From Dissophora ornata (lineage: Eukaryota; Mortierellomycota; Mortierellomycetes; Mortierellales; Mortierellaceae): 57,497 nucleotides of DNA. Positions 23,401-34,545 of the stretch are shown piece by piece. Every line of letters starts with the position of its first letter. Position 1 is the first letter of the stretch. The DNA lies in assembly GCA_025201705.1 (NCBI GenBank), contig MU616678.1:1-57497 (forward strand), read 5' to 3'. Under the pieces are notes generated by a model. The model saw only the letters and a list, made by a program, of their open reading frames with translations. It searched no databases and was not told the DNA's origin. A program made the translations under genes and the position numbers.

Positions 23401-24149
23401 GCATCTGATCCGATCGGTGCCCTTCGCTATTTCATTGTTTATAACCGCTCACACCCTCGCTAATTCCTTATAGAATCGCATGTACATACATTACTCAACA
23501 TTGTATATCTCTCCGGCTTTCCCACCCGCCTCACCAAGAGCGAAATCCCCGAACTTGATTGTAAGTCCCTTTGATCAAAATCGCGCTCTCTGTGATGGGA
23601 ATCTCTCACGCTCACTCTCAACTCGCGCCTTCTTCCTTGATAGATTTAACCCAGATCACATTCGAACTGTACGAAAGAAGCGGACCTGGCACACCCTTGA
23701 ACTCTCCCGTCGGCACCGACTCGGCTTCTTCAACATCACCCGGCGGGCCTCAGTCGCCTCAGTCACCAGAGTATTCTCTTCGTATTGGATTCTCCCCCGG
23801 CGCAGGCAACCCCAACATTTTGGACCTGCAAATGGACTCGAAGCATTGCCTATCAGTGATGCCTCGACGCAACCTGACAGACCACTTGCCACTGGATGCG
23901 GCGATTCGGTACTACAAGACTCAGGTTGGGAACCCAAAGTACAAGTGCGTCAACAGAAAGATTCGCGAGAGTCGGATGTTGGGACACAGACTTGTGGTGG
24001 CGAACGAAGGTGAAGAGGAGGCACTGATCCAAGACGAAGAACCGCTGATGGTTGTTGGCTCGCCGATAGGGCCAAGTGGTGTGGAATTGCACTTTGCACA
24101 GAAATATGCTGAAGCACAGAGAGGAGCGGATTCCAACGCATCCAACTGA
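20467..24149 (+). CDS. VIP1: PPIP5K/Vip1 inositol pyrophosphate kinase-phosphatase
   Basis: Bifunctional enzyme that phosphorylates inositol polyphosphates (IP6/5-IP7) at the 1 position and carries a histidine-acid-phosphatase-like domain that removes that group. Eight exons join in frame to 986 residues: 20467-20620, 20749-20877, 21038-21483, 21582-21733, 21834-22500, 22577-23396, 23474-23560 and 23644-24149. The ATP-grasp kinase shows IIGVCSMDDKARSKPMRNIL, ITKPFVEKPVSGEDHNIHIY and VIDVNGWSFVKGNNYYYNNC. The phosphatase signature RHADRTP spans residues 411-417, and ESHVHTLLNIVYLSGFPTRL lies near its end. The last two exons are the parent of the truncated copy at 28745-29430. A Ser/Pro-rich insert (SPGGPQSPQSPEYS) lies in the last exon. 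Confidence 0.96.
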
Positions 24150-24869
24150 GATAGGGTAAATAGCCTTGTGAAGGAATGTAGATAGTTAATGAACAAAAAA
24201 TGCCTTGTTTCCTGCAGTGATGTCAAATCGAGTCTGGTGTCGACAGTGATATGATAGTTCAACAGCTAGGTTTACATATCGCATTTTTTTTAACAGCATG
24301 TCTCTCTGGTTTAATGACGCGACAACCTCTGTGGGAATCAACGGATAATGTCACCCTTCGCAATGAAGGTATCTGCCAATGCTAAATAACCACTTGCATT
24401 CCCATGGGCTAACTCAGCGGGCATACGCAATTATTGCCACCTCTCGTCAGGGTGTTAAAGACTTGAAGACACACTCTACCAGAGATCAATCCTCCCTATC
24501 CCCTCCATCGTGCCACGTTTCCTCTTTCCCAGCAAGCTCTATAGTAACGTACGAACTGTGTCGTGTGGGTCAAGTGTGGGCCCTGGACAGATCCCGCCTT
24601 CATGGTCCTACAGACACCCACCACGAGGTGTACATATCGCTTTCGTCGTTTATCACGAGTACCCCTGGACAGAGCTTTTTTGTTTCAATTATCGTACTGT
24701 GCAGAAACGACTCTCGCCCTCGCCATTGCGCTTATCGTGCACTGGCCTCCGGCTCTTTTTTACGCCATTTTTTTTGTATTCTTCCTTGCTTCCTCACCAT
24801 CCACTCCGTTGCTTCCTCACCATCCACTCCCTTCCCGTCTTTCTGCCCTCGGACAAAGAAATTGGCTTC
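24150..24869. other. intergenic region VIP1 to X1
   Basis: No independent gene seen. About 24215-24625 has no counterpart in the right-hand unit, while both flanks do. The segment 24786-24830 is a tandem doubling of a 23-base string that is single in the right unit. Confidence 0.5.
24786..24830. repeat. 23-bp tandem duplication
   Basis: TTGCTTCCTCACCATCCACT followed by CC and repeated once with a minor end difference. The paralogous place near 29665 has one copy. Confidence 0.85.
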
Positions 24870-32934: not shown

Positions 32935-33206
32935 TGGGGAAGTAGCGACCCAGTGTATGCGACGTGCAAGCGGTGGTATAACTTTGCTCCAATTATTGAC
33001 GCGTTTTTGACACAAATATTTCGTGATGCAACATTCAATTAAAGTACAAATGAGGGTGTTACCGTTGTTTTATGGAGCAAATAGCGGTGATGATGATGAT
33101 GATGATGGTGTGTGAGTGTATGATGGATGCGAATCTATCTATGTTTTTCTCCAAAAAAAACAAGCACAACAAGGAATCCCTTTTCTTCCAGGGATCCTGT
33201 TTTCGC
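32935..33206. other. spacer X2 to RPA43, with (TGA)n tract
   Basis: Mirrors the spacer after X1. The triplet microsatellite is at about 33087-33110. No gene seen. Confidence 0.6.
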
Positions 33207-34545
33207 CTATGCCTCGGTCTTGATCTTCTTCTCCTTCTTGTCTTTCTTTTCCTTCTTATCTTTCTTCTCCTTCTTGTCCATTTCTTTGTCCTCGTCGTTC
33301 TTTTCCTTCTTCTCCTTGCCCTTGTTCTCGCCCTTTTCTTTCTTCTCCTTCTTTTCCTTCTTTATCCTCTTGAGATCAGTCTCCTGTGATGCAGCAGAGT
33401 TATCCTCCTCTGGTGCAGATCGCTTCTTCTGCGCCGGATCAGATACAACAGAGCTCTTCTCGGAAGCAGGCGAGGGCTTGACCATCATGGATGGGCGACG
33501 TACCGTCACTGGTACCTTCATCAATGATCCTGTTACTGTCAGCATATCATTTGTCCTGACCAAACTATATATACGAATCACCCAAAAAGATACATAATAA
33601 AAGCAATTAGTAAAAACAGGAAAGGCACACACACACATGACAGATTACAAAACAGTAGCCTGGAACCCCTCCAAAAACTTACTCTGAGACTTCAAATTCA
33701 ATGACGCCTTCATGTCCAATGCTTTCGCCCGTGCTCTTCAAGACCCACTCGCCATTCAACAATCCATTCACTGCTGCTGCAGAAGATTCTTCGCTCTGGT
33801 CTTCCCCGCTCTTGACGCGGCTATAGCTGCTGTTGGGGTTGAACTCGTACTTGTCCTTGGGAATGAACTCTGAAGGAATCGACGCGTTGAATGTGCCGTA
33901 CAATAGCAGACCGATATGATCGGGTGACTGCAAGTTAATTGTTCCAGCTATAAAAAAAAAAAAACGACATGATTTTTTGCAAGTGCAAGAACAGGAGTTC
34001 AAAGGAAAAAAAAAATTAGATGGGAAAAGTAGAAACGCCTTTTCGAACAACGAGTGTAGAGTTCTTGTTGATAGGGCGATATTCCATCAAAAATATAAAA
34101 TAAAACTTACAAAGGGTGCTTCCTTTGGTGGGCTTCCAAACCAACAGCCTGACCGAAATCCAGAAATGGCAGTAAGGCGAGTCGTAGAGAATCTTTCCTG
34201 ATGACTCCAGTAGCTTCAGATCCGAGTGCGCTAGTACAACGCCATCAACCTGCGGCATATATCTATATATATGTCAATGTTCCGTACCCCCCACAGCCCC
34301 ACAACTCGATGATTAGAAGGGGGGGTTGCTGATCAAAGTAGCTGCTCGTGGTTCCCTTCCTTTTGTCCAGTTTCAGTATTCAAAAAAAAAGGGACGAACC
34401 TCATGAGAAAGCCATTCAATTGCTCCTGGATACCCTCGATTGGCTTGGTGGCAAAGCATGGTGGCAAGTGGACATATAATCTGGTTGACACTTCCACGAA
34501 GGGTCCAGAACCGGCGGACGGTGAAGGGGCGGATTTTTTGGGCAT
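33207..34545 (-). CDS. RPA43: RNA polymerase I subunit RPA43
   Basis: Pol I stalk subunit that, with A14, contacts Rrn3/TIF-IA during rDNA transcription in the nucleolus. Four exons join in frame to 303 residues: 34545-34400, 34262-34111, 33947-33683 and 33555-33207. Exon 1 encodes the start of the SHS2-like tip (RLYVHLPPCF), exon 2 RYMPQVDGVVLAHSDLKLL and FWISVRLLVWKP, exon 3 the OB-fold (LQSPDHIGLLLYGTFNASIP, GEWVLKSTGESIGHEG). The C-terminus is a highly charged Lys/Glu tail, as in many nucleolar proteins. This is the intact copy; its last exon and part of its last intron are duplicated at 28423-28740. Confidence 0.93.

What the first reader, a model, noticed from the sequence alone, without database searches (positions are those of the whole stretch)
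23486..33630. Head-to-tail duplication of VIP1-tail / X / RPA43-tail with each flanking gene kept intact once
Two direct units of about 5.2 and 4.9 kb carry the same order of pieces. The left unit holds the true VIP1 end plus a truncated RPA43 end; the right unit holds a truncated VIP1 end plus the true RPA43. The simplest origin is one tandem duplication whose ends fell inside VIP1 exon 7 and inside the last RPA43 intron. It doubled gene X without destroying either essential neighbour. Seen in sequence; the mechanism is inferred.
Basis: partly seen in the sequence, partly recalled or inferred. Interest (0 to 1): 0.75.

Follow-up and report, generated by a model that had tools for sequence, protein, structure and literature searches.

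The report
Tandem duplication of a fungal LRR gene
A five-kilobase stretch carrying one leucine-rich-repeat gene and the ends of its two neighbours was copied once, head to tail, in the soil fungus Dissophora ornata; both gene copies still hold a long open frame, and the event looks like an ordinary way for a large gene family to grow.

Summary
Two units (about 23488-28753 and 28750-33638) align end to end, head to tail (78-89% identity by block). The junction near 28750 joins an RPA43 intron to VIP1 exon 7 across a 4-bp microhomology. VIP1 and RPA43 each have one intact and one cut, decaying copy. One tandem duplication is by far the best explanation; substitution differences of 8-23% by segment argue against an assembly echo. 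Records name the source Dissophora ornata. Gene X belongs to a large LRR family with over 40 loci in this genome. Additions: (1) exon 2 of both X copies looks selected for an open frame (no frame-shifting indel in 2,837 bp; dN/dS 0.64); (2) both copies depart from the family's usual N-terminus, X1 by a 1-bp deletion in exon 1, X2 by loss of the usual start ATG; (3) a 343-bp retroposon-like element with a 15-bp target-site repeat sits in unit A only. A second VIP1 lies elsewhere, so 'essential neighbour' is not supported for VIP1. The single-copy ancestral order could not be checked in relatives' DNA.

The parts
23488..28753 (+). Unit A: VIP1 3' end (intact copy), X1, truncated RPA43 3' end (ends uncertain by a few bases)
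28750..33638 (+). Unit B: truncated VIP1 3' end, X2, RPA43 3' end (intact copy) (ends uncertain by a few bases)
28745..28756 (+). Duplication junction GGCACACATTAC; ACAT (28750-28753) is present on both parent sides (VIP1 side 23488-23491, RPA43 side 33635-33638)
   Evidence: one search prints the three sequences; positions counted
20467..24149 (+). VIP1/asp1 inositol hexakisphosphate kinase, intact, 8 exon matches
   Evidence: P0172, D. ornata, longest contig 57,497
28750..29423 (+). Truncated VIP1 tail: starts inside exon 7, splice donor after exon 7 lost, TAA at 29295 in the last exon, indels
24870..25095 (+). X1 exon 1 (family N-terminal piece); ATG present, one base fewer than X2 between 25051 and 25052, frame shifted
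25233..28215 (+). X1 exon 2, open to stop; deposited as EDD21DRAFT_368396; tail longer than X2's because X2's stop region (24 bp) is absent
29736..29962 (+). X2 exon 1; frame open, TTG where X1 has ATG; nearest in-frame ATG upstream at 29565, 171 nt before
30078..32934 (+). X2 exon 2, open to stop; deposited as EDD21DRAFT_368401
24283..24625 (-). Retroposon-like dispersed element (T-run at its left end), unit A only; repeats AGGTTTACATATCGC (24268-24282) and AGGTGTACATATCGC (24626-24640) flank it; unit B has one such site
28447..28749 (-). Truncated RPA43 last exon (from 28686) plus part of its last intron; tail shortened and frame-shifted
33207..34545 (-). RPA43 (RNA polymerase I subunit), intact, 4 exons

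Best explanation
An ancestral single VIP1-X-RPA43 segment underwent one tandem duplication. Its breakpoints fell in VIP1 exon 7 and in the last RPA43 intron and were joined at a short microhomology, as in microhomology-mediated end joining or a replication-template switch (the route is inferred). Because both ends lay inside neighbouring genes, the X gene was copied whole with both flanks, while each neighbour kept one intact copy and left one dead 3' fragment. Afterwards the fragments decayed, a retroposon-like element entered unit A (inferred from its flanking repeat and the single site in unit B), and both X copies stayed open over exon 2 while diverging. Each lost the usual family N-terminus in its own way, so translation most likely starts elsewhere: downstream in X1, downstream or at the upstream in-frame ATG 29565 in X2 (inferred). 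X encodes an LRR protein, most likely one that binds or recognises other proteins (inferred from fold only).
For: Collinear head-to-tail homology with one junction, one intact and one cut copy of each neighbour; shared ACAT at the junction. RPA43 query DNA has 2 places in the genome, intact and truncated. Of 26 residue differences between intact and cut VIP1, 16 have the intact residue commoner among 17 homologues, 6 the other, 4 tied; at 8 sites that are the same in 17 of 17 the fragment differs (one is its stop), and at one site (K in 17 of 17) the fragment keeps the common residue and the intact gene does not. VIP1 intact versus fragment dS 0.19, dN 0.063; X exon 2 dS 0.144, dN 0.092, ratio 0.64, bootstrap 0.49-0.86. 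Exon 2 has 3 indels, none frame-shifting, in 2,837 aligned bp, against 4 frame-shifting in 808 bp of VIP1 and RPA43 exon copies; about 14 expected at that rate. X1 and X2 are sisters (support 1.00) among 44 family cores; next best identity 0.50. Two pairs of copies on contig C82 also share DNA on both sides of the gene.
Against: No reads, transcripts or relative's DNA for this locus could be examined. Synonymous differences are uneven along exon 2 (20 of 266 sites in codons 200-600, about 62 of 365 elsewhere, Fisher p 0.0005; the stretch was chosen after looking), and identical runs are longer than expected (longest 105 bp, p 0.009), so gene conversion or selection may have blurred the age. 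Substitution differences range from 8% to 23% by segment, leaving out the element and its flank. Both exon-1 changes leave open that one or both copies no longer work.
Confidence: 0.88

Rival explanations
1. Assembly artefact: two haplotypes or two repeats wrongly laid in series.
For: Draft assembly of 968 contigs; no read evidence was available to me.
Against: Substitution differences of 8-23% by segment, decay found in the cut copies, an element in one unit only and a microhomology junction. A second D. ornata record (P0003, BGZ58_004112) equals the X1 record over blocks of 458, 57 and 342 residues, but its junction was not seen.
Confidence: 0.03
2. One X copy came in by dispersed or RNA-based copying next to an existing relative rather than by a segmental duplication.
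For: The family is large and spread over many contigs.
Against: The intron, both flanks and parts of both neighbour genes are copied in the same order.
Confidence: 0.01
3. Only one X copy is still selected; the other is a young pseudogene.
For: Overall dN/dS of 0.64 is high and both first exons are damaged.
Against: No frame-shifting indel in exon 2 (about 14 expected if one copy decayed at the rate of the cut exons, P of none about 8e-7; 0.008 with the lower 5% bound of that rate); 4.6 stops expected in one neutral lineage, none seen, P 0.01. The rate rests on 4 indels, 2 of them in the low-complexity RPA43 tail.
Confidence: 0.12

Closest known systems
Tandem duplications that cut genes, surveyed in Drosophila yakuba (PMC5460883; only the search listing with the start of its abstract was seen)
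   Same: One segment copied head to tail; that breakpoints inside genes leave partial copies is recalled knowledge of the field
   Different: Here the partial copies are 3' ends that are decaying; no chimeric gene was noticed at the junction, though none was searched for with transcripts
Other same-contig copies of this LRR family in the genome (C82, C149, C608, C631, C13)
   Same: Same-contig copies are sisters in five cases; two C82 pairs share DNA beyond both gene ends
   Different: Not examined for captured neighbour-gene fragments; X1/X2 sit together on a long branch
Clusters of plant NBS-LRR resistance genes (titles and abstract starts in listings)
   Same: LRR genes found in clusters and multiplied by tandem duplication
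   Different: No nucleotide-binding domain was found in X by Pfam; function untested

Membership tests
Tandem segmental duplication | Two collinear direct copies abutting at one junction, outer flanks not repeated | tested here: met
Tandem segmental duplication | Single-copy state in an outgroup at the same locus | not testable with these tools
   no relative's DNA held; only contig lengths and locus tags from protein records
LRR family of X | Conserved core (LFI.L...F.C.CE.G.HT; G..KWVC..H) and C-terminal LRR solenoid | tested here: met
   invariant columns in 77 aligned sequences; profile matches LRR chains down to 7.6e-16; model confident over most of residues 350-970, Foldseek hits to NLRP and ribonuclease-inhibitor chains
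LRR family of X | N-terminal exon with an ATG close to its start and an unbroken frame | tested here: not met
   exon 1 was found in 28 of 40 other loci, 30 exons; 30 of 30 have an ATG within 60 nt before the match or two codons inside it; X1 is frame-shifted, X2 lacks that ATG
NLR (nucleotide-binding LRR) immune receptors | NB-ARC or NACHT domain | tested here: not met
   no Pfam family below E 0.17 for the X1 and X2 frames; the part before residue 350 is modelled poorly, so a very divergent domain is not excluded

The most novel reading that the evidence does not exclude
X1 and X2 are a diverging recognition pair of a LRR family seen so far only in Mortierella-type fungi: after duplication both independently shed the family's N-terminal piece (or, in X2, gained a new upstream leader), while the LRR-bearing part was kept open and pushed to diverge (codons 200-600: dN/dS 1.2, bootstrap 0.73-1.92).
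Probability: 0.15. Interest if true: 0.5.

Novelty: new member of a known kind. Interest (0 to 1): 0.25.

Why it matters
It is a clean example of how a large, uncharacterised LRR family in soil fungi gains a member, with neighbour fragments and an inserted element as internal clocks. If both duplicates really lost the family N-terminal piece in parallel, that would be a natural test of what that piece does.

Tried and rejected
Pfam identity of X: nothing significant; in 7 family relatives only LRR_6 (one protein) and a Ydc2 resolvase domain (one protein) passed their cut-offs. Literature: 9 searches listed no title or abstract start about this locus or family; only listings were seen, no paper was opened, and one search remained unused. 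Positive selection: the ratio exceeds 1 only in a stretch chosen after looking and its interval spans 1, so it is not claimed. Gene conversion: identical runs are longer than expected, but dN is not reduced in the low-dS stretch, so it is left open. One partial core piece (C608, 7.1 kb) was dropped before the tree. In one search, 8 of 9 locus pairs matched; in 2 (both on C82) the match runs past both gene ends by more than 150 bp, in the others it stays in the gene, reaches only a short way outside it, or adds short separate pieces; the ninth pair was compared on opposite strands with a plus-only search and says nothing.

Full report
What is there. The window is contig C117 of a 31.37-Mb, 968-contig assembly. 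Protein records whose longest contig is 57,497 bases name it Dissophora ornata: EDD21DRAFT_368396 and _368401 for X1 and X2 and a 'cortical actin cytoskeleton protein asp1' for VIP1. Self-comparison shows two collinear direct units, about 23488-28753 and 28750-33638. Unit A holds the true VIP1 end, X1 and a cut RPA43 end; unit B holds a cut VIP1 end, X2 and the true RPA43 end.

Gene identities. VIP1: eight exon matches at 20467-24146 with 91-100% identity to its own record, and homologues with the VIP1 domain set. RPA43: the first 18 hits, Mortierella-type fungi by name, are 65-81% identical, each with the RPA43 OB domain. The left breakpoint is in the seventh VIP1 exon and the right one in the last RPA43 intron (33556-33682, read).

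The junction. RPA43 side ...GGCACACACACACATGACAG, VIP1 side ...GTACATACATTACTCAAC, junction ...GGCACACATTACTCAAC. ACAT is common to both sides. This fits microhomology-mediated joining or template switching; the route is inferred.

Decay of the cut copies. The VIP1 fragment lost the splice donor after exon 7, has TAA at 29295, and indels. Of 26 residue differences from intact VIP1, 16 have the intact residue commoner among 17 homologues, 6 the fragment's, 4 are tied. At 8 sites that are the same in 17 of 17 the fragment differs, one of them being its stop; at one site the fragment keeps the K found in 17 of 17 while the intact gene has R. The RPA43 fragment has a shortened, frame-shifted tail. 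VIP1 has another copy on contig C617 (70-86% identical by exon). That yeast vip1 nulls live and rpa43 nulls do not is recalled, not from a call.

Gene X. Among 44 family cores of this genome X1 and X2 are sisters (support 1.00), next best identity 0.50 (one partial piece dropped). The database search listed 120 of 517 hits: P0001 and P0002 are the window's X2 and X1 records, P0003 (BGZ58_004112) is X1 from a second D. ornata record set, equal to P0002 in blocks of 458, 57 and 342 residues. Hits outside D. ornata reach 37% where they cover 85% or more of the query, and 47% over 42% of it; the named ones carry names of Mortierella-type genera (their family placement is recalled). The family profile matches LRR chains of ribonuclease inhibitor and NLRP proteins. 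A model of X1 exon 2 (mean pLDDT 70.8; 550 of 993 residues at 70 or more) has a repeat solenoid over about residues 350-970 and matches the same folds, with query TM-scores of 0.12-0.33 in the 50 rows shown. No nucleotide-binding domain was found by Pfam.

Selection. Exon 2: 947 codons, dS 0.144, dN 0.092, ratio 0.64 (0.49-0.86); 1.20 (0.73-1.92) in codons 200-600 and 0.46 (0.32-0.63) elsewhere, stretches chosen after seeing the data. Indels in exon 2 are 12, 24 and 72 bp in 2,837 aligned bp, all multiples of three; the 24-bp one lies at the 3' end and takes in X2's stop, so X1 runs on for some 20 more residues. The copies of VIP1 and RPA43 exons have 4 frame-shifting indels in 808 bp and the noncoding parts 12 in 788 bp. 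If one X copy decayed like the cut exons, about 14 frame-shifting indels are expected (P of none 8e-7; 0.008 with the lower 5% bound of the rate); two of the 4 lie in the low-complexity RPA43 tail, which may inflate that rate. Stops: 4.6 expected in one neutral lineage, none seen (P 0.01). So both exon 2 frames appear kept by selection, though one lapsed copy is not excluded.

The N-terminal exon. The 20 loci fetched all gave an exon-1 match. In a wider look exon 1 was found in 28 of 40 loci outside the window, 30 exons in all; 12 loci gave none of 100 nt or more. All 30 have an ATG within 60 nt before the match or two codons inside it. X1 has the ATG but one base fewer than X2 between 25051 and 25052, which shifts the frame; X2 has an open frame but TTG at 29736 in place of the ATG, with the next in-frame ATG 171 nt upstream at 29565 and no stop between. 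The deposited models of both genes begin at internal methionines, which fits. Exon-1 dN/dS is 0.79 with a wide interval (0.32-2.41). A sequencing error at the single base in X1 cannot be excluded, although P0003 begins at the same internal methionine.

A clock inside unit A. Positions 24283-24625 match dispersed copies: 49 of 52 match rows fall on this part. It has a T-run at its left end, shared by many of the 20 copies aligned, and is flanked by AGGTTTACATATCGC and AGGTGTACATATCGC; unit B has one such site, AGGCGTACGTATCGC. The simplest reading is a retroposon that entered unit A after the duplication.

Family context. Same-contig sister pairs occur on C82, C149 and C631 (support 1.00 each), C608 (0.87) and C13 (0.71); the two C149 copies are about 19 kb apart. 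Nine locus pairs were compared: 8 matched, 2 of them (both on C82) well past both gene ends, for example 4.1 kb at 86%; the ninth was an uninformative opposite-strand comparison. Tandem segmental duplication is therefore a likely, not a proven, usual route for this family.

What could not be tested. No relative's DNA, reads or transcripts were available. VIP1 and RPA43 records share a contig length of 223,872 in Gamsiella multidivaricata, and of 4,281,076 in Linnemannia hyalina with tags KI688_000512 and KI688_000527: linkage looks conserved, adjacency does not follow.

Verdict. Real, well explained and ordinary in kind; the departure of both duplicates from the usual N-terminus is the one part worth a bench look.

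Noticed in passing
24283-24625: Retroposon-like element with many dispersed relatives in the genome, imperfect 15-bp flanking repeat, single site in unit B.
   Followed up: yes
24870-25095 and 29736-29962: Both X copies depart from the family's usual N-terminus in different ways (one base fewer in X1; ATG to TTG in X2).
   Followed up: partly
33210-33370 and 56348-56598: Low-complexity sequence shared between the lysine-rich RPA43 tail and a stretch near the window's right end; the tail is shorter in the cut RPA43 copy.
   Followed up: no
G000 contig C617:14533-17883: A second VIP1 paralogue (70-86% identical by exon); some other Mortierella-type strains also show two VIP1 locus tags.
   Followed up: partly
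L037 (G000 C82:32000-35500): A family member with six stops in its core, an apparent pseudogene among other copies on C82.
   Followed up: no
P0021 (Mortierella polycephala): A family protein carrying a Ydc2-type mitochondrial resolvase domain (E 1.6e-25), a fusion or a merged gene model.
   Followed up: no
P0024, P0030, P0101: Three of the 120 listed relatives carry a precomputed PF27087 match; that model did not come up in the Pfam copy scanned.
   Followed up: no
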